A DNA stretch of 64,000 nt from an uncultured Bacteroidales bacterium (GTDB lineage: Bacteria > Bacteroidota > Bacteroidia > Bacteroidales > Paludibacteraceae): the NCBI GenBank assembly GCA_900316005.1, contig ONBH01000013.1, positions 1 to 64,000 on the forward strand, in the 5' to 3' direction. How positions within the stretch are numbered: the stretch's first letter is position 1; every line of letters begins with the position of its first letter. Below are positions 2,121 through 62,001 of the stretch, one piece after another. Under the pieces are notes generated by a model. That model did no database searches, had not been told where the DNA came from, and saw only the letters and a program-made list of their open reading frames with translations. Made by a program: the position numbers and the translations under genes.

Positions 2121-2223
2121 AGGACGAAGGACAAATGTACGAGGTACGAAGGATTTACGAAGGAAAATAAGGACGAAGGTCCATCGTACATCAATCGTAC
2201 ATCGTACATCGTAAATCGTACAT
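2121..2223 (+). repeat. Heptamer arrays between the two dipeptidase genes
   Basis: A degenerate 7-nt array (AGGACGA, AGGACAA, ATGTACG, AGGTACG) begins at 2121. It is followed by four CGTACAT-type units at 2196-2223. The array fills nearly the whole gap and may act only as a spacer. Confidence 0.8.
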
Positions 2224-2239
2224 ATAATTGATTTATACC

Positions 2240-3688
2240 ATGAATAACTTAGAACCGAAAGAAGTTTTCGCCATTTTTGACGAAATCAGAAAAGTACCTC
2301 GTCCGTCGAAGCACGAGGAGAAAATCAGTCAATGGCTCGTAGATTTCGCTGCACAGCACGGTATCGAATGCGTGCGCGACGAAGCCATGAATGTCATCAT
2401 GCGCAAGCCGGCTACGCCCGGTATGGAGGGCAAACCCGGCGTTATCCTGCAGGCACACATGGATATGGTGTGCGAGAAAGACAGCCATGTGGAGCACGAT
2501 TTCATGACCGACCCCATCGACACCTACGTAGATGGCGAGTGGCTCAAAGCCCGTGGCACCACCTTGGGCGGCGATGACGGTATCGGCGTAGCCATGGCCT
2601 TAGCGGTCATCACCAGCAACAGCGTGCAGCACCCCGACTTAGAATGCCTCTTTACCGTAGATGAAGAGACCGGCCTCACCGGCGCCTTCAAACTGCAGGA
2701 CGGCTACCTCAAGGGACGCCAACTCATCAACCTCGACTCCGAAGACGACGGCCAGATATTCATCGGCTGCGCCGGCGGTATCGACACCTTAGCAAAGATG
2801 CATTATAAGGGTGAAAGGTTAATGGTTAAGGGTGAAGAGTTGTTTGCAGCACGCGTGCGTGTCAGCGGCCTGATGGGTGGCCACTCGGGCGATGATATCA
2901 ACAAAGGACGCGGCAATGCCAATAAGATTATTGTCCGCTTCCTCTTTGAGGTCATGAAGCGCACCCCGATGCAGTTGGCAGCCATCAACGGCGGTAACCT
3001 GCGTAATGCCATCGCCCGCGAGGCAGAGGCCGTATTCTGCGTGCCGATGGCATGGAAAGAAGAGCTGCGCATCCTCTTCAACCACTACGTAGCCGACATC
3101 GAGGCAGAGATCAAAGACGTGGAGAAAGACATCCGTCTGGAGCTGGAATCGACCGATATGCCCGACGTTGTGATACCCGAGGATAAGGCAAAACGGCTGA
3201 TTCAAGCCCTCTATGCCTGCCCGCACGGCATGATTGCTATGTCAAAAGATATGCCCGGACTGGTTGAGACATCCACCAACCTGGCCAGCATCAAGATGAA
3301 AGACGGGTACGTAGAGATCAACACCTCGCAGCGTTCGTCCGTCGAGAGCCAGAAGCACCATATAAAGAATATGGTAGAGTGCGCGCTCGCGCTCGCGTGC
3401 GATGAGGTGACCCACGGCGACGGCTATCCCGGTTGGAAACCCAACGTACACTCGCCGCTGATGGAGGTGACCCGCCGCGCCTACAAAGACCTGACCGGCA
3501 AGGAGCCCGAAGTATTGGCTATCCATGCCGGCCTGGAGTGCGGTCTGTTCCTGGAGAAATATCCGTATCTGGATATGGTAAGTATCGGTCCGCAAATGTA
3601 CGGGGTACACTCGCCTCAAGAGAGGCTGAGCATACCCGGTACGAAGCGTTGTTATGACTGGCTGTGCCGCGTGTTAGCCACGCTGTAA
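2240..3688 (+). CDS. pepD: Aminoacyl-histidine dipeptidase (M20 family)
   Basis: Starting at the ATG at 2240 gives 482 residues. A TTG further upstream is in frame but poorer. Motifs are the metal-binding HMDMV near residue 73, GGDDGIGVAMA, and the catalytic DEETG. GGHSGDD and AGLECGLF follow, as expected for cytosolic PepD (Xaa-His dipeptidase). A close paralogue lies at 43951-45396. An in-frame heptamer array (2810-2837) encodes a segment just before GGHSGDD; the corresponding stretch of the paralogue is unrelated in sequence. The 3' end overlaps the convergent glycogen synthase gene by 37 bp. Confidence 0.9.
   Translation: MNNLEPKEVFAIFDEIRKVPRPSKHEEKISQWLVDFAAQHGIECVRDEAMNVIMRKPATPGMEGKPGVILQAHMDMVCEKDSHVEHDFMTDPIDTYVDGEWLKARGTTLGGDDGIGVAMALAVITSNSVQHPDLECLFTVDEETGLTGAFKLQDGYLKGRQLINLDSEDDGQIFIGCAGGIDTLAKMHYKGERLMVKGEELFAARVRVSGLMGGHSGDDINKGRGNANKIIVRFLFEVMKRTPMQLAAINGGNLRNAIAREAEAVFCVPMAWKEELRILFNHYVADIEAEIKDVEKDIRLELESTDMPDVVIPEDKAKRLIQALYACPHGMIAMSKDMPGLVETSTNLASIKMKDGYVEINTSQRSSVESQKHHIKNMVECALALACDEVTHGDGYPGWKPNVHSPLMEVTRRAYKDLTGKEPEVLAIHAGLECGLFLEKYPYLDMVSIGPQMYGVHSPQERLSIPGTKRCYDWLCRVLATL
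2810..2837 (+). repeat. In-frame heptamer array inside pepD
   Basis: Four units GGTGAAA, GGTTAAT, GGTTAAG, GGTGAAG, AT-richer than the flanking codons, encode part of the segment GERLMVKGEE. Confidence 0.75.
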
Positions 3689-5157
3689 GCCTCGAGATAA
3701 TGCTTGAAGAAGTGCTTCCAGAGCGTCTTCTTCGCCACAGCCGCTGCAGCTTTGCCTGCGGCGGCTTTTTCGTCGGCGCTAAGGTGCAGGTAGTCGTTCA
3801 ACTCACCCGCCAGTTGCTCGATGAGTTCCAGGCCATTGGAGTCGGTACGCGTCATCACGCATACGCCATCGGTGAGGTGGTCTGCCTTGCCTTTCAGCAG
3901 CGTCTTCGCCCACTGACCAAAGCCCGAAAGCGTCGTGGTGATGGTGGGTACGCTGAAGGCAGCCGATTCCAGCGGCGTGTAGCCCCAGGGCTCGTAGTAG
4001 GAGGGGAAGACGGTAGCATCCAGACCGATGAGCGTGTCGTAGTACGTACGCTGTACCAGCGGATCGTGACCGTCAAGGTAATACGGCACGAAGACCACAT
4101 GCACACGCTCGTTATGGCTGAAGGACGGATGATCCAGATACGGTACGAGCACGAAGGCCACAACCTGTTCATCGCCATTCCAGCGATAGGCGAGGCGTTC
4201 TACGGCATCCAGGAAGACATCAATACCCTTGTTGCGCCACTCGAGACGACCGGCTATTCCGATGAAGTGGTCACGCTCGGGGTCGATGGGTCGGCTCAGA
4301 TGCAGACGCTTGCCTGCCACCTCAGCCAATACGCGGCGGGCCTCCTGACGGCATGCGGTGAAGGCTTTGCCCTTGGGCACAAAGTCTTGCTCGAAGCCAT
4401 TGGGCAGCACCACATCCGGACGGCGTTCGAGAAGTTGCTCACACTCGCGGGCGGTGGGTTCGCTGACCGTCGTGAAGCAGTCTGCCACGCGGGCAGCGTT
4501 CTTCTCGGCACTGTGTTTGGATACCATATTCAGTTCGCTTGCCATCTGGTCACCGTTGTAGGCAGTGAAATAGTCGTAGAGCGGTTTGCCGTTGCCGGCG
4601 ATAGAGCGACCGATACCCGTAGCATGGGTGGTGAAGATAGTCGCGATATCCGGACAACGGTTCTTGAGGTAGAACAGCGTGAAGGCCGTCTGCCACTCGT
4701 GTGCATGTACCACGGTTTTGATTTTCTTGTCACCCTTGGTCAGCGCGGCTTGCAGGCTGTTCATGGCTTCGCCCACTGCATAACCGAACATGGCAGAGTC
4801 GTCGTAGTCACCATAGGCAGCATGACTCTGCACGCCAAAGTGGTTCCATGCCCAGCTGTATATCTCGTCTTTCTGCGGCCATAGGTACTGATAGTTCACC
4901 AGTACAGCTATCGGGTTGCCGGGAATCTGCCAGCGACCTACGCGTACGTTACCGGGTTTCTGCCAGCGGCCGAGGATTCGTTTGTCTTCACGGAAAAACT
5001 GGTCGCTTCTCTCGCCCAAATCGGGACCAAAGAATACGACATGATCTGGGAAAAGCGTTTGCATCGTGGCCGAACGGGTTGCGAGGACGGCACAGATACC
5101 ACCTACCTGGTTGCATACCTCCCAGCTGGTCTCAAAAATGTAATCGGGATTATTCAT
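3652..5157 (-). CDS. Glycogen synthase, eukaryote-like GT3 type
   Basis: The protein has 501 residues. The N-terminus contains FETSWEVCNQVGGI, the hallmark start of GT3-like glycogen synthases found in Bacteroidetes. HAHEWQTAF lies near residue 150. The C-terminal GT-B domain carries YEPWGYTPLE, with the two acidic residues of the donor-binding motif. It should add glucose from a nucleotide-sugar to glycogen in the cytosol. It is the last gene of a three-gene minus-strand operon after miaA and a PKD lipoprotein, starting 2 bp after that gene ends. The 3' end overlaps convergent pepD. Confidence 0.88.
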   Translation of the reverse strand: MNNPDYIFETSWEVCNQVGGICAVLATRSATMQTLFPDHVVFFGPDLGERSDQFFREDKRILGRWQKPGNVRVGRWQIPGNPIAVLVNYQYLWPQKDEIYSWAWNHFGVQSHAAYGDYDDSAMFGYAVGEAMNSLQAALTKGDKKIKTVVHAHEWQTAFTLFYLKNRCPDIATIFTTHATGIGRSIAGNGKPLYDYFTAYNGDQMASELNMVSKHSAEKNAARVADCFTTVSEPTARECEQLLERRPDVVLPNGFEQDFVPKGKAFTACRQEARRVLAEVAGKRLHLSRPIDPERDHFIGIAGRLEWRNKGIDVFLDAVERLAYRWNGDEQVVAFVLVPYLDHPSFSHNERVHVVFVPYYLDGHDPLVQRTYYDTLIGLDATVFPSYYEPWGYTPLESAAFSVPTITTTLSGFGQWAKTLLKGKADHLTDGVCVMTRTDSNGLELIEQLAGELNDYLHLSADEKAAAGKAAAAVAKKTLWKHFFKHYLEAYSVANTRHSQS

Positions 5158-5159
5158 AA

Positions 5160-9318: not shown

Positions 9319-10320
9319 ATGGTAAGTTTTAAGGAATTAGGCCTGGTGAATACCCGTGAGATGTTCGCTAAGGCAATCAAAGGCGGTTATGCTATTCCCG
9401 CTTTCAATTTCAACAACATGGAGCAGTTGCAGGCCATTGTTAAGGCTTGCGCAGAGACAAAATCGCCGGTTATCCTGCAGGTATCGAAGGGCGCACGTAA
9501 CTACGCCAACCAAACCCTGCTGCGCTATATGGCACAGGGTGCAGTAGAGTATGCCAAGGAACTGGGTTGGGAGCACCCGCAAATCTGCTTACACCTGGAC
9601 CACGGTGATAGCTTTGAGCTGTGCAAGAGTTGCGTGGACTTCGGTTTCTCAAGCGTGATGATCGATGCTTCTTCTCTGCCCTACGAGGAGAATATTGCCC
9701 TCACCAAGAAAGTCGTTGAGTATGCTCACCAGTACGATGTAACCGTTGAGGCTGAGCTCGGCGTATTGGCAGGCGTAGAGGACGAGGTATCGTCGGCAGT
9801 AAGCCACTATACCAAGCCCGAAGAGGTAGTTGACTTTGCTACCCGCACCGGTTGCGACAGCCTGGCTATCTCCATCGGTACCAGCCATGGTGCCTATAAG
9901 TTCACGCCCGAACAGTGCACCCGTGACCCGAAGACCGGTAAACTCGTTCCGCCCCCATTGGCATTCGACGTGCTCGACGCTATCATGGAGCAGCTGCCCG
10001 GCTTCCCCATCGTACTGCATGGTTCGTCTTCCGTTCCCCAAGAGTACGTGGATATGATCAACCAATACGGCGGTAAACTGCCTGACGCAGTAGGTATTCC
10101 TGAGGAGCAACTCCGCAAGGCTGCCAAGAGCGCTGTATGCAAGATCAATATCGACTCCGATAGCCGTCTTGCCTTCACGGCTGCCGTTCGTAAAGTCTTC
10201 GCCGAGAAACCGGGTGAGTTCGACCCGCGCAAATACTGCGGTCCCGCACGCGACCTGATGGAGCAACTCTACAAGCACAAAATCATCAATGTGCTGGGTA
10301 GCGACGGCAAAGCAGAGTAA
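9319..10320 (+). CDS. Class II fructose-bisphosphate aldolase
   Basis: The protein has 333 residues. HLDHGDSFELCKSCVDFGF carries the Zn-binding His and Asp. Further motifs are SVMIDASSLPYEENI, VEAELGVLAGVED and VLHGSSSVP; the last binds the substrate phosphate. The enzyme interconverts fructose-1,6-bisphosphate with DHAP and glyceraldehyde-3-phosphate in glycolysis and gluconeogenesis. The long N-terminus and overall length match the Bacteroidetes form. No canonical promoter is visible in the 93 bp upstream. A TTGATAA array begins immediately after the stop codon. Confidence 0.93.
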   Translation: MVSFKELGLVNTREMFAKAIKGGYAIPAFNFNNMEQLQAIVKACAETKSPVILQVSKGARNYANQTLLRYMAQGAVEYAKELGWEHPQICLHLDHGDSFELCKSCVDFGFSSVMIDASSLPYEENIALTKKVVEYAHQYDVTVEAELGVLAGVEDEVSSAVSHYTKPEEVVDFATRTGCDSLAISIGTSHGAYKFTPEQCTRDPKTGKLVPPPLAFDVLDAIMEQLPGFPIVLHGSSSVPQEYVDMINQYGGKLPDAVGIPEEQLRKAAKSAVCKINIDSDSRLAFTAAVRKVFAEKPGEFDPRKYCGPARDLMEQLYKHKIINVLGSDGKAE

Positions 10321-10348
10321 TTGAAAATTGATAATTGATAATTGACAA
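10321..10348 (+). repeat. Heptamer array abutting the aldolase stop codon
   Basis: TTGAAAA, TTGATAA, TTGATAA, TTGACAA begins on the base after the TAA stop. It lies between the aldolase and CoA-transferase genes. Confidence 0.85.
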
Positions 10349-10357
10349 TTAAGATTT

Positions 10358-20466: not shown

Positions 20467-20483
20467 AGCCTATCTTAATTTTT

Positions 20484-20511
20484 GTCGTTTGTCGTTAGTC
20501 GTTTGTCGGGA
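20484..20511 (+). repeat. GTCGTTT heptamer array
   Basis: Units GTCGTTT, GTCGTTA, GTCGTTT, GTCGGGA lie between the antiporter and ychF. Confidence 0.85.
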
Positions 20512-23093: not shown

Positions 23094-23218
23094 TCGGGGT
23101 CGTAAAATCGAAAGCACCCTGCTACCGACATCATATTAACGACATACCTTTCGCTAACATGGATAACACACCCTCTTGTTGTATGTATTTACTCTTTTTT
23201 TGCTAAAAAATACGGATA

Positions 23219-23246
23219 TTCATTATTAATTATTCATTATTCATTC
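23219..23246 (+). repeat. TTCATTA heptamer array upstream of the ribD promoter
   Basis: Units TTCATTA, TTAATTA, TTCATTA, TTCATTC end 6 bp before the -33 box of the ribD promoter. Confidence 0.8.
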
Positions 23247-23252
23247 AAAAAA

Positions 23253-23284
23253 TTTGCGTATGTGCAATTTTTGTTGTACCTTTG
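23253..23284 (+). promoter_or_regulatory. Promoter of the ribD operon
   Basis: TTTG (23253-23256), a 20-bp spacer, and TACCTTTG (23277-23284). The leader to the start codon is only about 50 nt, too short for an FMN riboswitch. Confidence 0.85.
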
Positions 23285-23338
23285 TGGCCTAAATTGCGGG
23301 AGAATGCCCTAAAAGGGCAAAAATAAGCGAAAAAGATT

Positions 23339-24376
23339 ATGCAAAACAATGACTGTTTCTATATGCGGAGGTGTTTGGAGTTGGCACGGAAGGGGGCATA
23401 CTATGTAGCCCCCAACCCGATGGTGGGGGCAGTGCTGGTGAAACGGTTCTCGATTATCGGTTCTGGGTTGTCGAACGACAAAATCATAAGCGAGGGTTGT
23501 CATATGCGGTACGGCGGTCCGCATGCCGAAGTGAACTGCCTCAACCCTTTGCCGGACGACTTCGACTATACGGACACCACCCTCTACGTGAGCCTGGAGC
23601 CGTGCAGCCACTGGGGCAAGACACCGCCCTGCGCCGACCTGATCATCAAGAAAGGCATTCCGCGCGTGGTAGTAGGCATGCAGGACCCCAATCCGCTGGT
23701 GAGCGGGCAAGGAATAGAGCGACTGCGAAAGCATGGCATAGAAGTTGTAGTAGGTGTCATGGAAGCCGAGTGCCGCGAGCTGAACAAGCGATTCCTCTGC
23801 CTGCAGGAGAAACACCGTCCGTACGTGATACTGAAGTGGGCAGAGACAGCCGATGGGTTCATCGACTACAAACGACAACCTGACTTTGGCAACCAAAAGC
23901 CGCTGGTGATATCAAACAAGGTGACCAAGCAGTTGGTTCACCAAATGCGGGCGGAGAACATGGCTATATTGGTCGGTTCGGGAACCGCACTACTGGATAA
24001 TCCGCGTCTTGCTACCACCCACTGGAGCGGACGCAACCCGATACGGGTGCTGTTAGACCGGCGCGGACGGGTGGATAAGACATGCCGGCTGTTTAGCGAC
24101 GATGCCGAGACTATCGTCTATCGCGGCGAAGGCGGGTGGCAGGATGTGCTACATATGTTGGCGGACCGCCATATCCACAGCGTGCTGGTAGAGGGCGGCG
24201 CCACGGTGCTGAATGCCATATTGACAGACGGCACATGGGATGAGATGCATGTGGAAGTAGCACCGATACGCATCGGCGACGGCGTGAAAGCGCCGCAGGT
24301 GTACCTGCCGGAAGAAGCGGGAAACGAAGTGGAGGGAAACAGGCTATTCATAATACGAAAAGCAATTGAAAATTGA
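23339..24376 (+). CDS. ribD: Riboflavin biosynthesis deaminase/reductase
   Basis: The protein has 345 residues. The N-terminal deaminase has PNPMVGAVLV, GGPHAEVNCL with the Zn-binding His, and PCSHWGKTPPCADLI with the two Zn-binding Cys. The C-terminal reductase has ILKWAETADGFIDY, RNPIRVLLDRRGR and VLVEGGATVLNA. It carries out steps two and three of riboflavin synthesis. An in-frame CGGTTCT array (23444-23471) lengthens the loop between VLV and SEGCHM. The last residues and stop lie in another array (24365-24392). Confidence 0.93.
   Translation: MQNNDCFYMRRCLELARKGAYYVAPNPMVGAVLVKRFSIIGSGLSNDKIISEGCHMRYGGPHAEVNCLNPLPDDFDYTDTTLYVSLEPCSHWGKTPPCADLIIKKGIPRVVVGMQDPNPLVSGQGIERLRKHGIEVVVGVMEAECRELNKRFLCLQEKHRPYVILKWAETADGFIDYKRQPDFGNQKPLVISNKVTKQLVHQMRAENMAILVGSGTALLDNPRLATTHWSGRNPIRVLLDRRGRVDKTCRLFSDDAETIVYRGEGGWQDVLHMLADRHIHSVLVEGGATVLNAILTDGTWDEMHVEVAPIRIGDGVKAPQVYLPEEAGNEVEGNRLFIIRKAIEN
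23444..23471 (+). repeat. In-frame heptamer array inside ribD
   Basis: Units CGGTTCT, CGATTAT, CGGTTCT, GGGTTGT encode the core of the segment KRFSIIGSGLSND. The order of unit types matches the intergenic array 470 bp upstream. Confidence 0.85.
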
Positions 24377-24392
24377 GAATGGAAAATGGAAA
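24365..24392 (+). repeat. Heptamer array across the ribD stop codon
   Basis: Units ATTGAAA, ATTGAGA, ATGGAAA, ATGGAAA. The second unit holds the ribD stop (24374-24376). The last unit ends six bases before the next start codon. Confidence 0.85.
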
Positions 24393-24397
24393 ATTTG

Positions 24398-25243: not shown

Positions 25244-26585
25244 GAAGATTATACCGATGATAGCCGTCACGCTATCACTCATGGCGCACGCCGATAATGT
25301 GATTGATGAGGTCATCTGGATAGTAGGTGACGAAGCCATTTTGCGCAGCGAGGTCGAAGAGGAACGTCTGCGCGCGCAGTATGAGGGGCAGCAGATGGCA
25401 GGTGACCCGTATTGCCTCATTCCGGAACAACTGGCGATACAGAAGCTGTTTCTGCACCAGGCCGAGTTGGACTCGATAGAGGTGAACGAATCGACTGTCA
25501 GCCATCAGGTGGATATGCGTATCAACTACTACCTTTCGCAAATAGGCAGCAAGGAGAAGATGGAGGAGTACTTCCGCAAGACGACCTCGGAGATTCGCGA
25601 AGAGTTGTCCAGCACGGTACGAAACCAGATGATCATCCAGCAGATGCAGATGAAGCTGACCGAGAACCTGAAACCCACCCCGGCGGAGATACGGCGCTAC
25701 TACAACAGCCTGCCCGAGGACTCCATACCGCTGATACCGGCGCAGGTGGAAGTACAGATCATCTCGCTGGAGCCCCAGGTACCCCAAGAGGAGATTGAGC
25801 GTATCAAGATGCGTCTGAGGGAGTTTACCGAGCGTGTGACCAATGGTACAGCGGATTTTGCGATGCTGGCTCGCCTGTATTCGGAAGACACAGAGAGCGC
25901 CAAACAGGGCGGTGAGTTGGGTTTTGTAGGCCGCGGACAGTTGGTGCAGGAGTTTGCCGATGTGGCATTCAACCTCAACGACCCCAAGAAAGTCAGCCGT
26001 ATCGTAGAGACGGAGTACGGCTATCATATCATTCAGCTCATCGAGAAAAAAGGCGACCGTATCAACTGCCGGCATATACTGATGCGTCCGCGTCTGTCAG
26101 CCAACGACAAGATTCATGCGCTGGAACGCCTGGATAGCATTGCCAACCTGATACGCGACGACAAAATGAAGTTTGAGGAAGCCGTTATCCGCTTCAGCCA
26201 AGACAAGACCACAGCGATGAATGCCGGCATGATGGCCAACCCGAATACGGGTGCCGGCAAGTTCGAGTACCAAGACCTGCCACCTGAGGTGGCACGGCAG
26301 ATATACGACATGAACGAGGGCGACCTGTCGCAGGCTTTTGTGATGATGGACCAGCAGAAAAACAAAGAGGTCTGCGCCATCGTGCGCCTGAAGAAAAAAC
26401 AGGATGCACACCAGGCAAACCTGACGGACGATTTCCAGGTCATCAAGGCTATGCTTGAGGAGAAATTAGCCGCCGAATTCATCGATAAGTGGATCCGCAA
26501 GAAACAACAGGAAACCTATATCCATATTGACCCCGCCTGGCGCGGATGCGACTTCCAGTACCCGGGATGGGGACAGGGAAATTGA
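25230..26585 (+). CDS. SurA-like peptidyl-prolyl isomerase
   Basis: The protein has 451 residues with a signal peptide ending near AHA (residues 19-21). A SurA_N-like helical domain with DEVIWIVGDEAILRSEVEEE follows. Then come two parvulin-type domains: the first holds LYSEDTESAKQGGELGFVGR, and the second opens with INCRHILMRPRLS and holds FSQDKTTAMNAGMM. It should act as a periplasmic chaperone/prolyl isomerase for outer-membrane proteins. The downstream neighbours (OstA-like protein and a barrel protein) fit this. The stop lies inside a heptamer array. Confidence 0.87.
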   Translation: MQRIKKIIPMIAVTLSLMAHADNVIDEVIWIVGDEAILRSEVEEERLRAQYEGQQMAGDPYCLIPEQLAIQKLFLHQAELDSIEVNESTVSHQVDMRINYYLSQIGSKEKMEEYFRKTTSEIREELSSTVRNQMIIQQMQMKLTENLKPTPAEIRRYYNSLPEDSIPLIPAQVEVQIISLEPQVPQEEIERIKMRLREFTERVTNGTADFAMLARLYSEDTESAKQGGELGFVGRGQLVQEFADVAFNLNDPKKVSRIVETEYGYHIIQLIEKKGDRINCRHILMRPRLSANDKIHALERLDSIANLIRDDKMKFEEAVIRFSQDKTTAMNAGMMANPNTGAGKFEYQDLPPEVARQIYDMNEGDLSQAFVMMDQQKNKEVCAIVRLKKKQDAHQANLTDDFQVIKAMLEEKLAAEFIDKWIRKKQQETYIHIDPAWRGCDFQYPGWGQGN

Positions 26586-26608
26586 GAGTTGATAGTTGAA
26601 AGTTGAAA
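26581..26608 (+). repeat. Heptamer array joining the surA-like stop and ostA start
   Basis: Units ATTGAGA, GTTGATA, GTTGAAA, GTTGAAA. The first contains the stop of the PPIase gene (26583-26585). The fourth contains the TTG proposed as the start of the OstA-like gene (26603). Confidence 0.85.
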
Positions 26609-28318
26609 ATTAATAGAGCACATATTATCGGGCTGGTGATTGGCATAATAATGTCAATTGTCAATTGTCAATTGTCAACTGCTCAAGAGCTGGTGTATCT
26701 GGAGCACTCAGAGACCTTGTCGTTTGACAAGGAACGACTGCCCGATGCCCAGATCCTAAAAGGCGATGTGCGCTTCCGCCACGACGACATGCTCATGTAC
26801 TGCGACTCGGCGTATTTCTACGAGAAAAGCAACTCGCTGGATGCCTTCGGCCATGTTCGTTTTGAGCAGGGCGATACACTATCGGGTTTTGGCGATGTAC
26901 TCTACTACGACGGCAACACGAAGTATGCCCGCCTGCGCCGAAACGTTCGGCTCATTCACCGCAACACGGTACTGACTACCGACCGCGTGGACTATGACCG
27001 CAAGGCGGAACGGGCTTTCTACGATGACTGGGGACAGATTGAAGACAGCCTCAACACCCTCACATCGGTCTGGGGACTCTACATGCCCCCGCATTCGCAA
27101 GCAGTCTTTCGGGATAAGGTGCACCTTATCAATACCAATTTTATCCTGGATACCGATTCGCTACGCTACAACACCAAGTCGCACATCGCCGATATCGTGC
27201 GGCCCACCACCATCGTCTATGAGGAAGAGACGACCATCTTGTCTGACTCAGGCACCTACAACACCGAGACGGAACAGGGCCTGCTCTACAAGCGCTCGCG
27301 CATACTGCATACCGACGGCAAACAGCTGACGGGTGACACCATTTATTACGCCAAGCGCGTGGGGTACGGGCGCGTACGCGGACATATGGAGATGCGCGAC
27401 ACCGTGCAACAGACCAGCCTATACGGCAACTACGGCGAGGTGTTCAACGACGGCGACAGCGGCTATGCCACCGACAGCGCGCTGTTAGTGGACTGGTCGA
27501 ACGATACGTCGTACACCTATATGCACGCCGACACGCTGTTCTCTGAACTGCAAGCCTATGTAGCCATCACCGTTCTACCCATCGACAGCACGATAGGCCG
27601 AATGGCACCCGATACGCTGCGCCGAGACAGTACTTACCGTCAGTTACGCGCATTCCACAACGTGCGTATCTACAACAAGGAATACCAGACGGTATCCGAC
27701 TCGGCTGTCTATAACGGCCTGGACTCTATCATAACGCTCTACCACGACCCTGTACTATGGAGCGACAAGCAGCAGGTGTCAGCCGACGTGATTCATATCT
27801 ACATCCGCAACGAACTCGCCGACTACGCCCACGGCGTGGGTAATGCCATCGCCATCAAACACGAGGCGCGCGACATGTTCGACCAAATGCAGGGCAAGGA
27901 GATGTTCGCCTATATCCGCGACGGCGAGATACGGCAAGTAGACGTGTCGGGCAACGCCGAGACCATATTCTACCCACGCGAGGAGGATGGCACCTTCACG
28001 GGTGTCAACAAAACCCAGTCGAGCCTGGTAAAACTGTACCTGAAAGACCAAAAGATTGAGCGCATCGTGTTCACAACCACCACCAACGGCACGATGTACC
28101 CCCTGGACCAAATCAAGGATACAGACCGATTCCTGAATGCCTTCTTCTGGGCGAAAAAGGAGCGTCCGCGTGACCCGATGGATGTCTTCCGCCATGCGGA
28201 ACGAACACCGCGTCCGAAGGAGAAGGCTGTATCGGCGGTAGTGGAAGAAGAGTTAGACGCAACCGAGAATCCGCGCAAGCAGAAAGAACAGCGGAACAAA
28301 AAGAGAATTGACAAATGA
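26603..28318 (+). CDS. OstA/LptA-like LPS transport protein
   Basis: The protein has 571 residues from the TTG at 26603. I choose this start because it gives a complete signal peptide: basic n-region, hydrophobic IIGLVIGIIMSIVNC, and cleavage near STA. The alternative starts, GTG 26636 and ATG 26651, leave a much poorer signal. The mature part has repeated beta-jellyroll OstA motifs (ILKGDVRFRHDDMLMYCDSA, FGHVRFEQGDTLSGFGDVLY). It likely bridges LPS across the periplasm. Part of the signal peptide is encoded by a GTCAATT array (26653-26680). The acidic/basic C-terminal tail looks disordered. Confidence 0.8.
   Translation: MKINRAHIIGLVIGIIMSIVNCQLSTAQELVYLEHSETLSFDKERLPDAQILKGDVRFRHDDMLMYCDSAYFYEKSNSLDAFGHVRFEQGDTLSGFGDVLYYDGNTKYARLRRNVRLIHRNTVLTTDRVDYDRKAERAFYDDWGQIEDSLNTLTSVWGLYMPPHSQAVFRDKVHLINTNFILDTDSLRYNTKSHIADIVRPTTIVYEEETTILSDSGTYNTETEQGLLYKRSRILHTDGKQLTGDTIYYAKRVGYGRVRGHMEMRDTVQQTSLYGNYGEVFNDGDSGYATDSALLVDWSNDTSYTYMHADTLFSELQAYVAITVLPIDSTIGRMAPDTLRRDSTYRQLRAFHNVRIYNKEYQTVSDSAVYNGLDSIITLYHDPVLWSDKQQVSADVIHIYIRNELADYAHGVGNAIAIKHEARDMFDQMQGKEMFAYIRDGEIRQVDVSGNAETIFYPREEDGTFTGVNKTQSSLVKLYLKDQKIERIVFTTTTNGTMYPLDQIKDTDRFLNAFFWAKKERPRDPMDVFRHAERTPRPKEKAVSAVVEEELDATENPRKQKEQRNKKRIDK
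26653..26680 (+). repeat. In-frame heptamer array encoding a signal-peptide segment
   Basis: GTCAATT three times and GTCAACT once encode SIVNCQLST at the end of the OstA-like signal peptide. Confidence 0.88.
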
Positions 28319-28350
28319 TAGTTCTTTCTGGTTTACTAATGCACTAGTAC

Positions 28351-28385
28351 CGAGAACCGAGAACCGAAAACCGAGAACCGATAAT
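28351..28385 (+). repeat. CGAGAAC heptamer array
   Basis: Five units (CGAGAAC, CGAGAAC, CGAAAAC, CGAGAAC, CGATAAT) lie between the OstA-like and barrel genes. This is the reverse complement of the CGGTTCT-type family at 22969. Confidence 0.88.
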
Positions 28386-28400
28386 CGATATTTTTAATAT

Positions 28401-31297: not shown

Positions 31298-32065
31298 ATG
31301 CTCTTTGATTCTATCATATACGGTCCGATACACTCCCGTCGCTTGGGTGTGTCACTGGGCGTGAACCTTATGCCTACGGACAAGAAACTCTGCACCTTCA
31401 ACTGCGTCTATTGCGAGTGCGGCTGGAACACGCAGGCTCTCTACCCCCTTCTACCTTCGCGCGCAGCTGTTCGTCAGGAACTGGAGGCAAAACTCATTGC
31501 CCTCCAAGCCGAAGGCATCCGCCCCGATGTCATCACATTCTCCGGCAACGGAGAACCTACGCTGCATCCCGACTTTCTCGGTATCATTCAGGACACCTGT
31601 GCGCTGCGCGACCGCTACTGTCCTTCCGCCAAGGTCAGCGTGCTGAGTAACTCCACCCAATTAGGGCGTACCGAAGTCAGAGAGGCACTGATGCTTGTGG
31701 ATAACCGTATCCTCAAACTCGATTCTGCCATTGACGAGACCATGCGCCGAATTGACCAACCGCTCAATCAGGAACTGACCGTCGCCCAAATCAAAGAGTG
31801 GCTGGCATGGTTCCGGGGCGACTTCACCCTGCAGACCTGCTTCCTGCGTGGCGAACATGCCGGTCAGCCTATCGACAACACGACCGAAACGGAACTCAAA
31901 GCCTGGTATCAGGCGGTAGAACAGTTACGCCCCAAACAGCTGATGATTTACGTCATCGACCGCGCCACACCCGAACAGCATCTGGAGAAAATCACGCGTG
32001 ATGAGATGGAGCGCATCGCCGCACCACTGCAGGCTAAGGGATTCCCCATCAGCATCAGCGCCTAA
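31298..32065 (+). CDS. Radical SAM protein
   Basis: From the ATG at 31298 the protein has 255 residues, beginning MLFDSIIYGPIHSRRLG. The radical-SAM cluster motif is CTFNCVYC (C-x3-C-x2-C), followed by DVITFSGNGEPTLHPDF, the GGE-like SAM-binding motif. It belongs to the COG0731-type radical SAM group, some members of which modify tRNA; its own substrate is unknown. The upstream in-frame start at 31274 lies in the heptamer array and is rejected. Confidence 0.85.
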   Translation: MLFDSIIYGPIHSRRLGVSLGVNLMPTDKKLCTFNCVYCECGWNTQALYPLLPSRAAVRQELEAKLIALQAEGIRPDVITFSGNGEPTLHPDFLGIIQDTCALRDRYCPSAKVSVLSNSTQLGRTEVREALMLVDNRILKLDSAIDETMRRIDQPLNQELTVAQIKEWLAWFRGDFTLQTCFLRGEHAGQPIDNTTETELKAWYQAVEQLRPKQLMIYVIDRATPEQHLEKITRDEMERIAAPLQAKGFPISISA

Positions 32066-32120
32066 ATATCAACTATCGTACGGCTTTAGCCGATCGTTCG
32101 AGGCTTTGCCGAGATAAGAA

Positions 32121-32148
32121 TTATCAACTATCAACTATCAATTATCAA
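32121..32148 (+). repeat. TTATCAA/CTATCAA heptamer array before the glycosyltransferase
   Basis: Four units ending five bases before the start codon at 32154. Just upstream, 32078-32115 carries two short inverted motifs of the CGGCTTTAGCCG kind. Confidence 0.85.
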
Positions 32149-32153
32149 CTAAA

Positions 32154-33194
32154 ATGAGGGTCTTCATCGCGCCACTGAACTGGGGACTGGGTCATGCTAC
32201 ACGTTGCGTCCCGCTCATTGAGCGTTACCGGCAGGAGGGGCACGAAGTCATCCTGGGCGGCGACGGTGAGAGTCTAATATGGCTCAAACGCCGTTTCCCG
32301 ACCCTGCGTATCGAAGAGTTGGCACAGTTGAGAGTAAGGTATTCCGCTACGCAGTCGCAGGTAGGTGCTATGCTCAGCATGCTACCCGACTTCATCCGTT
32401 TTATTCGCGAAGACCACAGACGCCTCCAGGCTCTGCAAGCTCGGTACCACTTTGACCTCATCGTATCCGACAACCGCTTCGGGCTCTATCTCCCCAAAAC
32501 CGAGAACCGAGAACCCAGAACCGAGAACCCAGAACCCAGAACCGTCTATCTCACCCACCAACTCCGAATCCGTCTGCCACACGGTTGGCGCTGGGCGGAA
32601 CCGCTGGCGGAGCGTATGCATGCCTATTTCTACCGGCAGTACGACGAAGTGTGGGTGCCCGACTACGAAGACTACGCCGGCTCGCTTGCCGGCTGGCTCA
32701 GCCACCCCAAGCAACTCCCCGCCCATACCCGCTATATCGGTCCCCTCTCCCGCTTCAACACTCAAAATATCAATTATCAACTATCAACTATCAACTATCA
32801 ACTATCAACTATCAACTATCAACTATCAACTATCAACTATCCCATCGTCGCTCTACTATCCGGTCCGGAACCCCAACGATCGCTGCTGGAGGAGAGCCTC
32901 ATCCGTCGCTACGAGAAACAGGCGGAGCGCGTGCTCATCGTTCGCGGCCTGATGCAGGGTCCACTGACGCGCACCACGCACGGCAACATCACCTTACTGC
33001 CACGTATGGACGACGATAAGCTGATAGCCGCCCTTTTGAACTGCCGCACCATCATCGCCCGCAGCGGCTACACCACCATCATGGATCTCCATGCTCTGGG
33101 ACTGCTCCATAAGGCCGAACTGATCCCTACCCCCGGACAGAGCGAACAGGAATACCTCAAAAAGTGGTTGACGGAACGCAAAAAGCAGAAATAA
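32154..33194 (+). CDS. MurG-like glycosyltransferase with two in-frame repeat arrays
   Basis: The protein has 346 residues. The N-terminus MRVFIAPLNWGLGHATRCVP has the glycine-rich acceptor loop of GT28/MurG-like GT-B enzymes. The C-terminal half has LLSGPEPQRSLLEE, ERVLIVRGLM and IIARSGYTTIMDL, a donor-site-like segment. Two arrays enlarge the protein in frame: residues about 115-130 (ENREPRTENPEPRT) and about 205-230 (repeats of NYQLSTI). Both lie where surface loops would be expected, so the enzyme may still fold. The substrate is unknown. Confidence 0.8.
   Translation: MRVFIAPLNWGLGHATRCVPLIERYRQEGHEVILGGDGESLIWLKRRFPTLRIEELAQLRVRYSATQSQVGAMLSMLPDFIRFIREDHRRLQALQARYHFDLIVSDNRFGLYLPKTENREPRTENPEPRTVYLTHQLRIRLPHGWRWAEPLAERMHAYFYRQYDEVWVPDYEDYAGSLAGWLSHPKQLPAHTRYIGPLSRFNTQNINYQLSTINYQLSTINYQLSTINYPIVALLSGPEPQRSLLEESLIRRYEKQAERVLIVRGLMQGPLTRTTHGNITLLPRMDDDKLIAALLNCRTIIARSGYTTIMDLHALGLLHKAELIPTPGQSEQEYLKKWLTERKKQK
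32501..32542 (+). repeat. In-frame array of six heptamers
   Basis: Six 7-nt units of CGAGAAC/CCAGAAC, 42 nt in total. They encode exactly the 14 residues ENREPRTENPEPRT. Confidence 0.92.
32767..32841 (+). repeat. In-frame array of about eleven CTATCAA heptamers
   Basis: ATATCAA and TTATCAA are followed by eight perfect CTATCAA units and a partial one. Three units (21 nt) encode each seven-residue repeat NYQLSTI. Confidence 0.95.
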
Positions 33195-37668: not shown

Positions 37669-39996
37669 TTATTTCGTAAGGTACGCGTGCATGGCATGCG
37701 CAGCTTGGCGGCCGTCTGACATAGCGAGTATGACAGTGGCACCGCCACGGGTGATGTCACCACCGGCAAAAATGGTCGGGATGGAAGACTGCATAGTCGT
37801 TTCATCGACCACAATGGTACCCTTCTTGCTAATCTCCAGACCACTGACCGTACGGGGAATCAGGGGATTGGGACTCACACCCACCGCTACGATGACCAAA
37901 TCGACCGGAATGGTGACCGTCTTGCCTTCCACAGGCACCGGACTGCGACGCCCGGACTCATCGGGTTCGCCCAATTCCATAACTTGCAGCACTGCCTCCT
38001 TGACGCGGCCGTTCTCGTCGGCATGGTACTCAATGGGGTTGTGCAGGGTCATGAACTCGATACCCTCATCTTTGGCGTGACGCACTTCCTCAATACGTGC
38101 AGGCATCTCGTCCTCGCTGCGGCGATAGACAATCATGGCGTGCTCAGCACCGAGGCGTTTAGCTGTACGGACAGCATCCATAGCGGTGTTACCGCCGCCG
38201 ATGACAGCCACATTCTTGCCATACAGCAGCGGAGTGTCGGTAGCCGGATTGGAGGCATCCATGAGGTTGACGCGGGTAAGGTATTCGTTGCAGGATAGAA
38301 CGCCGTTTAGGTTCTCGCCGGGTATATTCATAAAGCGCGGCAGACCCGCCCCCGAAGCTACAAAGATACCCTTGTACCCTTGCTCACGGAGTTCGTCAAT
38401 GGTGATGGTCTTACCGATGATGACATCCGCCTCAAAGCGCACACCCAGAGCACGCAGACCGTCAATCTCTTGGTCCACGATACGGTTGGGCAGACGGAAT
38501 TCGGGGATACCGTATTTCAGCACACCGCCTATCTCGTGCAAAGCCTCGAATACCGTGACCTGATAGCCGAATTTGGCCATATCTCCGGCAAAACTGAGGC
38601 CGGCAGGACCACTACCAACAACCGCTATTTTAGCGCCTGTCGGATTCTGGGCCTTTTGCTCATTTGCCATTTGGCCATTAGCATGGTCAGCCACGAAGCG
38701 CTCCAGGTAACCGATAGCGACGGGTTCGTGGTTCATCTTGCGGTGGATGCAGTGTGCCTCACATTGCTTCTCCTGCGGGCAGACGCGACCACAAACAGCG
38801 GGTAGCGATGAACTCTGCTTGATAACTGCAGCCGCACCGGCTACATCGCCGGTCTCCAAGAGCTTGATGAAGCCGGGGATATTGATATTGACGGGACAGC
38901 CCTGCACGCAGGTGGGGTTCTTGCAGTTGAGGCAGCGGTGGGATTCGGTAATCGCCTGGTCGAAGGTCAGGCCTTGGTTCACCTCCTCGCGCAGGGAGCG
39001 GACGCGCACCTCGGGAGGCAGTTCGGGCATCCGGACGCGGGGAATGGCGACACGGTCTTTCGCGGTGCCGTCGAAGGGTTCTATGGGATAGACAGAGGCC
39101 TGACATTGTACTTGACTGTCGTTCGACCGTCGTTCGACCGTCGTTCGACCGTCGTAATTGACTGCTGAAGAAGCAGACGAATTTTGGTAGGCAGCAAGTG
39201 CCTCCGCCTCCTCGGTGCGGTAGGATTTCAGGCGGGATAACATCTCGTCCCAGTCCACCTGATGGGCATCAAACTCCGGTCCGTCAACGCAGACGAAGCG
39301 TGTTTTGCCGCCTACTGTCACGCGGCAGGCGCCGCACATACCCGTTCCGTCCACCATGATGGTGTTGAGGCTCGCCTCGGTCGGAATAGCATATTTCAGG
39401 GTTGTCAGGGCTACAAACTTCATCATGATAGCGGGGCCGATGGTGATACATTTGTCAACCTGTTCGCGCTGAATAACGCGCTCCACACCTACCGTCACCA
39501 CACCCTTGTCGCCCAGCGAACCGTCATCGGTCATCACGATCACTTCATTGGATACGCGCGCCAGCTCTTCCTGCAGGATGATGAGCGAGGCTGTGCGGGC
39601 AGCCAGAACGGTGATAACACGGTTTCCGGCGGCATGCAATGCCTCAGCGATAGGCAACATAGGTGCGGCACCGACGCCACCACAGGCACAAACGACGGTG
39701 CCATAGTGACGAATATCGGTGGCCTTGCCCAGCGGACCTACGACATCATGCAGCTGTTGCCCGGGGTTCATGGCGCATAGTTTAGACGAGGAAACACCAA
39801 TGCGCTGCACGATAAGCGTTATGGTACCTTTCTCTATGTCGGCGCCGGCGATGGTAAGCGGCATGCGCTCGCTATCTTTATCCACGCGAATGATGACAAA
39901 ATGTCCGGGACGCCGACTGCGCGCAATGAGGGGGGCTTCCACTACCACCTCGCACACGTTCTCCGAAAAGAATCGTTTTGAAATAATTCTATTCAT
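37669..39996 (-). CDS. Fused NfnA/NfnB-like oxidoreductase
   Basis: The protein has 775 residues in two parts. Residues 1 to about 260 form a ferredoxin-reductase-type FAD/NAD unit (RRPGHFVIIRV, CACGGVGAAPMLPIAEA) with a [2Fe-2S] site MCGACRVTVGGKTRFVC. Residues about 300-775 are a glutamate-synthase small-subunit-like unit with cysteine clusters CLNCKNPTCVQGC and CGRVCPQEKQCEAHC, FAD-binding VVGSGPAGLSFAGD and NADPH-binding VAVIGGGNTAMDAV. Such fusions occur in Bacteroidetes and may bifurcate electrons between NADH, ferredoxin and NADPH. The linker holds an 11-nt tandem array (39118-39154). A second linker near residue 435 looks repeat-derived. Confidence 0.87.
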   Translation of the reverse strand: MNRIISKRFFSENVCEVVVEAPLIARSRRPGHFVIIRVDKDSERMPLTIAGADIEKGTITLIVQRIGVSSSKLCAMNPGQQLHDVVGPLGKATDIRHYGTVVCACGGVGAAPMLPIAEALHAAGNRVITVLAARTASLIILQEELARVSNEVIVMTDDGSLGDKGVVTVGVERVIQREQVDKCITIGPAIMMKFVALTTLKYAIPTEASLNTIMVDGTGMCGACRVTVGGKTRFVCVDGPEFDAHQVDWDEMLSRLKSYRTEEAEALAAYQNSSASSAVNYDGRTTVERRSNDSQVQCQASVYPIEPFDGTAKDRVAIPRVRMPELPPEVRVRSLREEVNQGLTFDQAITESHRCLNCKNPTCVQGCPVNINIPGFIKLLETGDVAGAAAVIKQSSSLPAVCGRVCPQEKQCEAHCIHRKMNHEPVAIGYLERFVADHANGQMANEQKAQNPTGAKIAVVGSGPAGLSFAGDMAKFGYQVTVFEALHEIGGVLKYGIPEFRLPNRIVDQEIDGLRALGVRFEADVIIGKTITIDELREQGYKGIFVASGAGLPRFMNIPGENLNGVLSCNEYLTRVNLMDASNPATDTPLLYGKNVAVIGGGNTAMDAVRTAKRLGAEHAMIVYRRSEDEMPARIEEVRHAKDEGIEFMTLHNPIEYHADENGRVKEAVLQVMELGEPDESGRRSPVPVEGKTVTIPVDLVIVAVGVSPNPLIPRTVSGLEISKKGTIVVDETTMQSSIPTIFAGGDITRGGATVILAMSDGRQAAHAMHAYLTK
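39118..39154 (+). repeat. In-frame 11-nt tandem array in the Nfn-like linker
   Basis: GTCGTTCGACC three times plus GTCG. It encodes, on the minus strand, part of the linker GRTTVERRSND. Confidence 0.9.
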
Positions 39997-40892: not shown

Positions 40893-40927
40893 TTTTCAAT
40901 TATCAACTGTCAACTATCAACTATCAA
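40893..40927 (+). repeat. Heptamer array supplying the psd stop codon
   Basis: Units TTTTCAA, TTATCAA, CTGTCAA, CTATCAA, CTATCAA. The minus-strand TGA stop of psd (40917-40919) and its last residues lie inside. Confidence 0.85.
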
Positions 40928-47451: not shown

Positions 47452-47456
47452 AATCA

Positions 47457-47484
47457 ATTGACAATTGATAATTGATATTTGATA
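47457..47484 (+). repeat. ATTGATA heptamer array after the M13 gene
   Basis: Units ATTGACA, ATTGATA, ATTGATA, TTTGATA lie between the stop codon and the terminator. Confidence 0.85.
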
Positions 47485-47488
47485 TTTA

Positions 47489-47532: not shown

Positions 47533-48231
47533 TCATCGCATCATCCTTCTGATCCCGGCAAGATGATGCGTATAGCTGCCGTCCGCCGTTCGGATACCCT
47601 GTGCATCGATGACATCGCGGCGCACCCAGCCGCTACAATGCCATACCTCATCCTTCGCAAGCAGAATGCCCACGTGGGATATTTTTCGGTTCTCGGTTCT
47701 CGGTTCTCGGTTATCGAATGCATGGTCGAAAAAGACGAGGTCACCGGCTTGTGCCTCCGGAAGCGAAGGAACAGGTGTCCCTTGCGTTATCTGCTCAGAG
47801 GCGTTGCGCAGCAACTGCACGCCGAACAACGAGAAGACGACCTGCGTCATGCCCGAGCAGTCCATCCCCCACTCGCTCTTGCCGCCCCATAGATACGGCG
47901 TATCGGCAAGAATAGAATAGATACGCAACAGATTATCGTGCGTGAAAGGTAGCGGTTCTGTCAATCGTATATCGCCCGTGAGCACCCGTTGACCATCAAC
48001 CATTGAACCCATCGTCAGTTTTGCCGGCACGCGGGGGCTTTCGCCCGTCAACTGCATCATCTTCCTATCCGCCCAGCCTTCCTGACAATCCCACTCGCTT
48101 CGCACACGCACCCATCGCTCCTGTGTATCCAGGAGCGTGCACGGCTCGCCGAAGAGAAGTTGGGTAGCCTGCTCGGCTCCCTCACGCGGCTCTTCGCGCA
48201 GCGGCACAACAGCTGCACAAGGGCTTACCAT
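47533..48231 (-). CDS. NlpC/P60 cysteine peptidase with SH3-like domain
   Basis: The protein has 232 residues. The N-terminal half looks like an SH3b domain (AVVPLREEPREGAEQATQLL, WVRVRSEWDCQEGW). The NlpC/P60 domain has the catalytic Cys in WGMDCSGMTQ and the catalytic His in ISHVGILLA. Between GDLVFFDHAFD and that His, a heptamer array inserts NREPRTENRK. No signal peptide is obvious from the ATG at 48231, which overlaps nadB by 7 bp. It probably cuts gamma-D-Glu-linked cell-wall peptides. Confidence 0.85.
   Translation of the reverse strand: MVSPCAAVVPLREEPREGAEQATQLLFGEPCTLLDTQERWVRVRSEWDCQEGWADRKMMQLTGESPRVPAKLTMGSMVDGQRVLTGDIRLTEPLPFTHDNLLRIYSILADTPYLWGGKSEWGMDCSGMTQVVFSLFGVQLLRNASEQITQGTPVPSLPEAQAGDLVFFDHAFDNREPRTENRKISHVGILLAKDEVWHCSGWVRRDVIDAQGIRTADGSYTHHLAGIRRMMR
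47687..47714 (+). repeat. In-frame CGGTTCT array inside the NlpC/P60 gene
   Basis: CGGTTCT three times and CGGTTAT once. On the coding strand it gives REPRTEN-type residues just before the catalytic His. Confidence 0.9.
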
Positions 48232-58049: not shown

Positions 58050-58119
58050 AGCCTGCAAAGGTACTACAAAAATTGCACATACGCAAATTTTCAAGACCTT
58101 TTTTGCAAAAATAGAATCA
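58050..58119. repeat. 70-bp block duplicated from the nadB promoter region
   Basis: It matches 49841-49910 at about 65 of 70 positions in the same orientation. The match covers the whole promoter and about 30 bp upstream of the -33 box. Confidence 0.9.
58056..58087 (-). promoter_or_regulatory. Promoter upstream of the small unknown gene
   Basis: On the minus strand TTTG (58084-58087), a 20-bp spacer, and TACCTTTG (58056-58063). Confidence 0.85.
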
Positions 58120-58130
58120 TAACATTATAT

Positions 58131-58204
58131 TTCGATGAGAATAACACTATTTTTCGATGAGAATAACACTATTTTTCGATGAGAATAACACTATTTTTCG
58201 ATGG
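58131..58204 (+). repeat. 22-nt tandem repeat, three and a third copies
   Basis: Perfect units beginning TTCGATGAGAATAACACTAT at 58131, 58153 and 58175, then a partial copy. There are no spacers. 22 is twice the 11-nt period seen nearby. Confidence 0.93.
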
Positions 58205-58292: not shown

Positions 58293-58352
58293 GATTACCC
58301 ATTTTACGTCTTTTCGTTTTGTCTTAATTCCAAGTCAGTCTTTTCCATATGC

Positions 58353-59156: not shown

Positions 59157-59198
59157 TTACTTAACTTCTGCGCCTTGTGCGTTATTAAAAAAAAGTCT

Positions 59199-61370: not shown

Positions 61371-61962
61371 TCACGATAACGTAGGATACGGTACCGGCTC
61401 CGTTATTCTGGATGCAGAGACGGAGTTGCTCCTGCGTAGAGAGGTTGCGGCGTACGTGGATGCGATACATGCTTCCGTCAAAACGGGCTGCAAAACGCTC
61501 GTCGTCCGTATAGAGGCTGACCTCCAACATATCGGCTTCGCCCTCCATAGGCACGACGATAAAGAGTTGCTGTCCCTGTCTGCCGTCGAGCGCGTAGGTA
61601 GCCATCTGCATGGAGCGGATGGTTTTCTCGATAAAGCAGATATCGTAGGTCTCGTCGCGCCCGTCCAGGAAACGGCCGTTGGAATAGCTGATACCGTAAC
61701 GGTCGGCATAGGCGTTATAGGCTGCATCGTTGATGCCGATGGTCTTATCTTCGGTATCCTCGGCGGGCGAGGGTGCGAGTTCGTCCATCAGGGTCCAACG
61801 CTCGTCATCCTTGAGTTGGTCCACGACGCCGGACTGCTGTCCTTCCTTAAACTGACGGAAGAGGCGTATATAATCCTCGGCGGTACGCTCCGCAGCCTCC
61901 TGTGCCGCAAGCGGCGAGAGTGTGAAAAGGCCAACGGCTAAACAAATCATTAAACGTTTCAT
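61357..61962 (-). CDS. Small secreted protein of unknown function
   Basis: I use the ATG at 61962, which starts a signal peptide MKRLMICLAVGLFTLSPLAA; the product has 201 residues. An in-frame upstream start at 61980 adds only six residues. The mature part is acidic (TAEDYIRLFRQFKEGQQSGV). It ends in a beta-rich region (MLEVSLYTDDERFAARFDGS and RLCIQNNGAGTVSYVIVNE). No family is recognised. Its place between the trypsin-like and CHAT genes, overlapping the latter, suggests it is a substrate, inhibitor or adaptor of that pair. Confidence 0.75.
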   Translation of the reverse strand: MKRLMICLAVGLFTLSPLAAQEAAERTAEDYIRLFRQFKEGQQSGVVDQLKDDERWTLMDELAPSPAEDTEDKTIGINDAAYNAYADRYGISYSNGRFLDGRDETYDICFIEKTIRSMQMATYALDGRQGQQLFIVVPMEGEADMLEVSLYTDDERFAARFDGSMYRIHVRRNLSTQEQLRLCIQNNGAGTVSYVIVNEHL

Positions 61963-61973
61963 ATGCGTGTCCA

Positions 61974-62001
61974 TTATCAATTATCAATTATCAACTATCA
62001 A
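61974..62001 (+). repeat. Heptamer array supplying the stop of the trypsin-like gene
   Basis: TTATCAA three times and CTATCAA once. The minus-strand TGA stop (61998-62000) lies in the last unit. Confidence 0.87.

What the first reader, a model, noticed from the sequence alone, without database searches (positions are those of the whole stretch)
2121..62001. Tandem arrays of many unrelated sequences share a 7-nt period and a size of about four units
At least fifteen loci carry arrays whose units differ (CGTACAT, GGTTAAG, TTGATAA, GTCGTTT, CGGTTCT, TTCATTA, ATGGAAA, GTTGAAA, GTCAATT, TTAAATY, CTATCAA and others) yet whose period is 7 nt. Most are close to 28 nt: 2196, 2810, 10321, 20484, 23219, 23444, 24365, 26581, 26653, 29182, 31259, 32121, 47457, 47687, 61974. 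Simple slippage would not be expected to give one period and one copy number from unrelated seeds. This points to a common process that makes or maintains heptamer arrays, perhaps a protein that measures 7-nt steps or a templated repair or insertion event.
Basis: partly seen in the sequence, partly recalled or inferred. Interest (0 to 1): 0.85.

Follow-up and report, generated by a model that had tools for sequence, protein, structure and literature searches.

The report
Heptamer arrays inserted as four-unit blocks
A gut-type bacterium's genome is sprinkled with short stretches made of about four copies of a 7-letter DNA word, which seem to arrive as ready-made blocks at gene ends rather than growing one copy at a time, and one kind of them hosts a tiny hairpin element.

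Summary
In 757 kb of this 2.27-Mb Bacteroidales draft genome, 158 arrays have period 7, against 24 for period 11 and at most 14 for any other period from 4 to 15; shuffled DNA gives none. Copy number peaks near four instead of falling geometrically. The units are not unrelated: 136 of 158 arrays fit five families, and all share a weak consensus. Arrays add their length to intergenic gaps, favour gene 3' ends, and in family A have phased ends. Relatives show empty and filled sites with 20-40-nt period-7 inserts. New here: a 41-nt two-hairpin element sits in phase inside such arrays, with 53 copies in this genome and present in 31 of 178 genus genomes. I read the arrays as dispersed STRR-type elements, copied in as roughly four-unit blocks and then altered by unit gain and loss. 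The period would be inherited, not measured by a protein, since some relatives use 8-nt units. Heptamer arrays as such are known (cyanobacteria, Xanthomonas, Beggiatoaceae). No enzyme or donor was identified; a RAYT-like gene is associated with the hairpin element, no more.

The parts
2194..2220 (.). Array ATCGTAC x3.9 (no family)
10319..10350 (+). Array AATTGAN (family A), begins in the stop codon of the upstream gene
20481..20508 (.). Array TTTGTCG x4 (no family)
23217..23245 (+). Array TATTCAT/TATTAAT x4.1 (family E)
24364..24394 (+). Array AATTGAN/AATGGAA over the upstream stop codon; L139 has an AATTGAN array at the same junction
26582..26608 (+). Array GTTGANA; L139 has GGTGAAA units at the same junction
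26652..26678 (-). Array TGTCAAT x3.9 (family A), lies in the 5' part of the downstream open frame
28349..28390 (+). Array ACCGAGA (family B), not found in L139
29182..29213 (+). Array TTAAATY (family C) upstream of dnaG; no array there in L139 or L142, another array (ATTGTAC/ATTGTAA) in L141 and L124
31257..31286 (+). Array TAATTGA (family A) over a stop codon
32066..32151 (-). TATCAAY array (family A) interrupted by the hairpin element; absent from L139
32077..32119 (+). Hairpin core CGTACGGCTTTAGCCGATCGTTCGAGGCTTTGCCGAGATAAGA, one of 53 copies in the genome
32154..33194 (+). Glycosyltransferase-like gene (PF13528 in precomputed domains of homologues) with two in-frame arrays
32498..32543 (+). 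In-frame array AACCSAG (family B); some alleles lack 21 nt
32768..32841 (-). In-frame array TATCAAC x10.6 (family A); some alleles lack 42 nt, one is frameshifted, others have another sequence
40903..40927 (-). Array TCAACTA (family A)
47455..47487 (+). Array AATTGAY/TTTGATA (family A)
47686..47712 (-). Array TCGGTTC (family B)
61973..62001 (-). Array ATTATCA (family A) over the stop codon of the upstream gene on the minus strand

Best explanation
These are dispersed STRR-type elements. A block of about four heptamer units (roughly 25-40 nt) is copied in one step into a new site, mostly at or after a stop codon, from an array elsewhere in the genome, by template switching or a similar short-homology copying event. 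Later, units are gained, lost and substituted by slippage or recombination. The period is 7 because the arrays descend from each other: the period is inherited while the unit drifts into families; one extra base in a unit gives the 8-nt dialects of some relatives. Insertions survive where they do little harm: at gene ends, in the orientation that supplies stop codons, or in frame in loops. One family is also the seat of a 41-nt hairpin element. Shown: block-sized inserts, humped copy number, phased ends in family A, unit families, added gap length, allele differences in 21-nt steps. Inferred: copying as the route, descent of the period, survival as the cause of the positions.
For: Copy number peaks at four. 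Unit families and shared consensus. Family A arrays not touching the core (80 of 120) end after NTT: T at +1 in 75 and at +2 in 60 of 80, periodic G at +3 in only 18; the base before the first unit is A in 75 of 80; the distinct TTT/TTA end also occurs in convergent gaps (4 of 5) and antisense inside genes (5 of 6). Co-directional gaps up to 600 nt: median 111 with an array (n 80), 56 without (n 273), 56 with the array subtracted. Thirteen period-7 inserts of 20-40 nt between alignable sequences, at about seven distinct orthologous sites; among periodic inserts of 18 nt or more, 15 of 16 have best period 7. The dnaG junction is empty in L142, holds ATTGTAC/ATTGTAA units in L141 and L124 and TTAAATY in the window. 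Near-identical alleles differ by 7 and 14 residues, i.e. 21 and 42 nt.
Against: No donor was traced for any insertion. Left ends in family A, and ends in B and C, are less sharp. Exact runs alone show no peak and the peak is weaker in relatives. Most held loci lie around one or two genes, so the empty/filled sites sample few junctions. Some junctions hold arrays in both species, and L139 has one (2098-2134) where the window has none, so losses are possible as well as gains.
Confidence: 0.47

Rival explanations
1. Ordinary simple sequence repeats: polymerase slippage that favours 7-nt steps, followed by selection that keeps about four units.
For: Over-representation of heptameric repeats in bacteria has been put down to the DNA segment held by the polymerase (cited in PMC4692102, passages). 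Unit number does change between alleles. Exact runs decline with length.
Against: Two-unit arrays are at the shuffled expectation and three-unit ones few; ends are phased in family A; the same few units recur at many sites; inserts of 20-40 nt appear at sites that are empty in relatives.
Confidence: 0.22
2. A mobile element with its own enzyme: the hairpin core with flanking heptamers is the full form, moved by a RAYT-like (Y1) transposase, and bare arrays are what it leaves behind or carries.
For: The core is in 53 near-identical copies here and in 31 of 178 genus genomes, in phase in arrays (right flank starts AA in 87 of 87, left ends TC[C/G][A/G]T in 83 of 87). A RAYT-like match occurs in 29 of 31 core genomes and 99 of 147 others (Fisher p 0.002; genomes are related, so this is a guide only). 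One hairpin pair changes on both sides in 4 of 23 distinct cores.
Against: Many arrays and whole families here have no core, and TATCAAC-type arrays are seen in genomes without this core (for example G010, G086). G091 and G097 have cores but no RAYT-like match was listed (drafts may be incomplete). No 7-bp target duplication of fixed length: flanks are 8-nt in 14 of 87 copies. The only Y1 match here (25.9 bits) is below the NCBIfam cut-off for REP-associated transposases (44.8 of 80).
Confidence: 0.23
3. Arrays are kept as a translation signal: a heptamer with a stop codon, repeated three or four times, puts a stop in all three frames between genes.
For: In co-directional gaps the gene strand of the array has stops in all frames in 74 of 106 arrays, the other strand in 40 of 106; 27 of 30 arrays that hold a gene's stop codon are in the sense orientation; orientation 69 against 32; divergent gaps are poor in arrays (4 in 19.7 kb against 106 in 71.3 kb). 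Translational roles were proposed for TAACTGA repeats (PMC4679880).
Against: Survival of harmless insertions gives the same bias. Units AACCGAG and TCGTACA have no stops. The same junction is empty in relatives.
Confidence: 0.08

Closest known systems
STRR sequences of filamentous cyanobacteria (short tandemly repeated repetitive, usually 7-bp units)
   Same: 7-bp units, intergenic, dispersed in many copies; PMC2670836 (passages) describes one 28-bp STRR of four repeats in Nostoc close to the end of the preceding gene.
   Different: Here five or more unit families in one genome, phased ends shown in one of them, and an in-phase hairpin element.
GGGAATC / GGGGAYT repeats of Xanthomonas and Nostoc (PMC4692102, one section and passages)
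   Same: Period 7, intergenic, near the end of the 5' gene, most often four units.
   Different: G-rich and discussed as quadruplexes; units here are mostly AT-rich.
TAACTGA repeats of Beggiatoaceae, cyanobacteria and some Bacteroidetes, including Paludibacter (PMC4679880, abstract and sections 7, 9, 10, 24)
   Same: Heptamer sets, intergenic, some overlapping stop codons, interior ones in reverse orientation; 7-nt indels between strains.
   Different: There one unit, two-copy sets commonest (68 plain of 170), mostly just upstream of start codons.
REP elements with RAYT transposases
   Same: The core is a short hairpin element in many near-identical intergenic copies, and a Y1/RAYT-like gene is present.
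   Different: It sits inside heptamer arrays; no functional link to the transposase was shown. REP features are recalled, not from a call.

Membership tests
STRR / heptameric simple sequence repeats | Tandem 7-nt units, dispersed, over-represented against other periods | tested here: met
STRR / heptameric simple sequence repeats | Mainly intergenic | tested here: met
   122 of 145 arrays that could be placed (23 inside genes; 13 at stretch ends not placed), with a rough gene finder
Slippage-type microsatellite | Copy numbers falling geometrically from two | tested here: not met
   but exact runs fall steadily
TAACTGA repeats | Unit TAACTGA | tested here: not met
   Canonical unit AACTGAT is not among the 41 of this genome; seen once in relative G019
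REP element (for the core) | Short imperfect hairpin in many dispersed copies | tested here: met
REP element (for the core) | Mobilised by a RAYT transposase | tested here: inconclusive
   Association 29 of 31 against 99 of 147 genomes; two core genomes without a listed match; no activity test
Transposon with fixed target-site duplication | Direct repeat of constant length around the element | tested here: not met
   7-nt flank period in 67, 8-nt in 14, neither in 6 of 87 copies
Rfam families (for the core) | Match to a described RNA family | tested here: not met
   No match up to E 10 in window 31900-32300

The most novel reading that the evidence does not exclude
The heptamer arrays of this genus, and perhaps STRRs in general, are among the smallest mobile elements: four-unit, roughly 30-nt blocks with defined ends, placed in one step at stop-start junctions by a dedicated activity, with a hairpin element as its structured partner. 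The four-unit size reported independently in Nostoc and Xanthomonas would then be a signature of that activity.
Probability: 0.25. Interest if true: 0.87.

Novelty: new variant of a known kind. Interest (0 to 1): 0.62.

Why it matters
The papers read here give heptamer arrays no settled origin or function. The copy-number peak, the phased ends and the empty/filled site pairs turn 'slippage or insertion' into a question that strain comparisons can settle. If blocks are inserted, bacteria have an unrecognised way of adding roughly 30-nt spacers at gene ends and, in frame, short repeat loops in proteins; the same arrays can then make genes phase-variable, because one unit shifts the frame.

Tried and rejected
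Considered and rejected or weakened: a strict 7-nt ruler (8-nt dialects); a 7-bp target-site duplication; quadruplexes as the reason for four units (most units here are AT-rich); an RNA family for the core. A search of 295 genomes over the order found the core in G000 only (four of the 295 are of its family, G000 included). On rechecking I found that I had overlooked the association of the RAYT-like gene with the core (29 of 31 against 99 of 147); I raised the mobile-element rival slightly and lowered the best explanation slightly for that. Paper searches failed on time; only searches returned listings, so I cannot say that block insertion or the core is absent from print. Other alleles of a second gene could not be followed (one search was not sent).
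Full report
What was given. The window is contig 35 of a 2.27-Mb draft genome; some close protein matches are named Paludibacteraceae, so I take it as a Bacteroidales genome from a metagenome.

Check of the observation. Thirteen of the 15 listed places hold a clear period-7 array, one is weak (2810) and one was not found (23444); four clear arrays were missed. In a 757-kb sample period 7 gives 158 arrays, the next is period 11 with 24, and shuffled sequence gives none. The hexamer TATCAA/TTGATA occurs 176 times in pairs 7 nt apart, against 0.6 on average at the other distances 8-20 (14 left out). In 20 genomes of the same genus (708 kb) period 7 again leads (56; period 11: 24; period 8: 14), with at least one array in 14 of the 20, but largely with other units in each genome. 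Of four further genomes, chosen because they carry the core, two have more 8-nt than 7-nt arrays.

Size. Growth by slippage from chance duplications should give mostly two- and three-unit arrays. With a score that tolerates mismatches, the excess over shuffled sequence peaks at four. Tolerant runs of family units: A 2:6, 3:8, 4:25, 5:15 of 78; B 4:6 of 30; C 4:6 of 21; D 21 of 32 at four; E 16 of 19 at four; three control heptamers gave a single exact run between them. Arrays with rare units also centre on four (3:5, 4:9, 5:6, 6:1, 7:1), with a detection limit near 2.7 copies. Exact runs alone do not show the peak, and it is weaker in relatives (3.5 copies 42, 4.0 22, 4.5 38, against 30 at 3.0 where 5 are expected).

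Units. Of 158 arrays, 53 fit family A (RTTGAYA), 19 B (AACCSAD), 25 C (AAATYTY), 14 D (GTTKAGW), 25 E (TATTMAT) at 85% or more of positions, and 22 none. Aligned by phase and strand, they share a weak consensus YRRYTNT, 4.16 per array against 2.7-3.0 for random or position-shuffled units, and variation within an array is highest at the N. So the units are related, or drawn from a narrow set.

Ends. In family A (120 arrays in 1.10 Mb, 80 not touching the core) the right end lies after ...GAYA-NTT in most cases: T at +1 in 75 and at +2 in 60 of 80, but the periodic G at +3 in 18. The terminal N is T in 43 of 80, unlike the R of internal units; after single copies of the unit TTT follows in 12 of 824. 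The TTT/TTA end does not depend on gene context (54 arrays with gene calls: co-directional sense 14 of 36, convergent 4 of 5, inside genes antisense 5 of 6, co-directional antisense 1 of 1, stretch ends 3 of 6). D and E also have fixed ends, but share neighbouring sequence; B and C are less sharp.

Position. Gene calls are rough (76% of bases). Co-directional gaps with an array are 111 nt at the median, those without 56, and with the array subtracted 56: arrays are additions. Of 101 co-directional arrays 32 overlap the upstream stop codon and 11 touch or overlap the start. The gene strand tends to be the one with stops in all frames (74 of 106 against 40). Divergent gaps are poor in arrays. 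Survival of harmless insertions can explain this; a function is possible but not needed.

Empty and filled sites. Against the nearest named relative (L139, 84% over 1,276 nt of dnaG) some junctions hold an array in both, with other unit numbers or units (24364, 26582), others only here (28349, 29182, 32066-32151), and one only in L139. Among all held loci, 13 period-7 inserts of 20-40 nt were found between alignable flanks; by my grouping they stand for about seven distinct orthologous sites, the rest being the same site again, family E in copies of one larger dispersed sequence, or arrays present in both. Of 16 periodic inserts of 18 nt or more, 15 have best period 7. Before dnaG, L142 has stop and start overlapping (TAATG), L141 and L124 have a 35-nt ATTGTAC/ATTGTAA array there, and the window has TTAAATY. 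At another junction L141 is empty, L121 has 29 nt of GTCGAAA-like units and L103 has 90 nt of AAATGGT-like units around another hairpin.

Within the species. The gene at 32154-33194 carries two in-frame arrays. P0002 and P0003, 97-98% identical to it where aligned, lack 7 residues in the first array and 14 in the second; P0008 continues in another frame after the second array, as loss of one unit would give; P0004-P0007 and P0012 have an unrelated sequence in the second loop; P0009-P0011, about 72% identical, carry other repeat-like peptides there. So units come and go, the loop is a tolerated site, and one unit can put the gene out of frame.

The hairpin element. The TATCAAY array at 32066-32151 is interrupted by about 41 nt with two hairpins. 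The genome holds 53 copies and the reversed control pattern none; 31 of 178 genus genomes have it, with 1 to 53 copies, and of 295 genomes sampled over the order only this one. In 87 copies read from 26 genomes the right flank starts with AA in all 87 and the left ends TC[C/G][A/G]T in 83; the better flank is 7-periodic in 67, 8-periodic in 14 and neither in 6; a diverged core in L064 lies outside any clear array. One hairpin pair changes on both sides in 4 of 23 distinct cores; the single-strand fold of the window copy is no better than shuffles (z -1.07), so support for folding is modest. Arrays occur without cores, so the core is more likely a guest than the maker. A RAYT-like gene matches in 29 of 31 core genomes against 99 of 147 others, which fits mobilisation of the core by such a protein but does not show it.

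Mechanism. I favour one-step copying of a block from an existing array, followed by unit gain and loss, with the period inherited (about 47%). A mobile element with its own recombinase (23%), slippage favouring 7 nt with later selection (22%) and selection for a signal (8%) remain. No enzyme was shown to act and no donor was traced.

Known or new. Heptamer arrays are known: STRRs of cyanobacteria (PMC2670836, passages), Xanthomonas and Nostoc repeats, mostly four units in Xanthomonas (PMC4692102, section 10 and passages), TAACTGA repeats (PMC4679880, abstract and sections 7, 9, 10, 24). The 2007 survey of heptameric over-representation is known to me only as cited there. In the few searches that worked (listings) and the passages read I saw no report of the copy-number peak in several families, the phased ends, the empty/filled pairs or the in-phase hairpin element.

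Noticed in passing
L188:946-1995 (-), G000:C28: RAYT-like gene of about 349 codons (NF047646 44.8 bits, below its cut-off of 80); its homologues occur in 128 of 178 genus genomes, and in several the match is split in the middle with an open frame kept, as if in-frame inserts were common there.
   Followed up: partly
window 39114-39155 and 58119-58203: Other tandem repeats: period 11 (GACCGTCGTTC, 3.8 copies) inside a gene, and period 22 (3.9 copies, 96% matches). Period 11 is the second commonest period in this genome and in the genus sample.
   Followed up: no
G000 L016:2982-3075, L066:3562-3805, window 23203-23298 and similar: A larger dispersed sequence around TTTGC..TTTGCA promoter-like boxes, some copies with and some without the four-unit family E array.
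   Followed up: partly
L103 vs L141 junction; L043:1769: Other hairpin inserts inside heptamer arrays (CATACGGCGAAGC..., CTCCCCCTTCAGGGGG...), so more than one kind of core may exist.
   Followed up: no
P0008 against window 32154-33194: A frameshifted allele at the in-frame array, which suggests phase variation of this glycosyltransferase-like gene.
   Followed up: no
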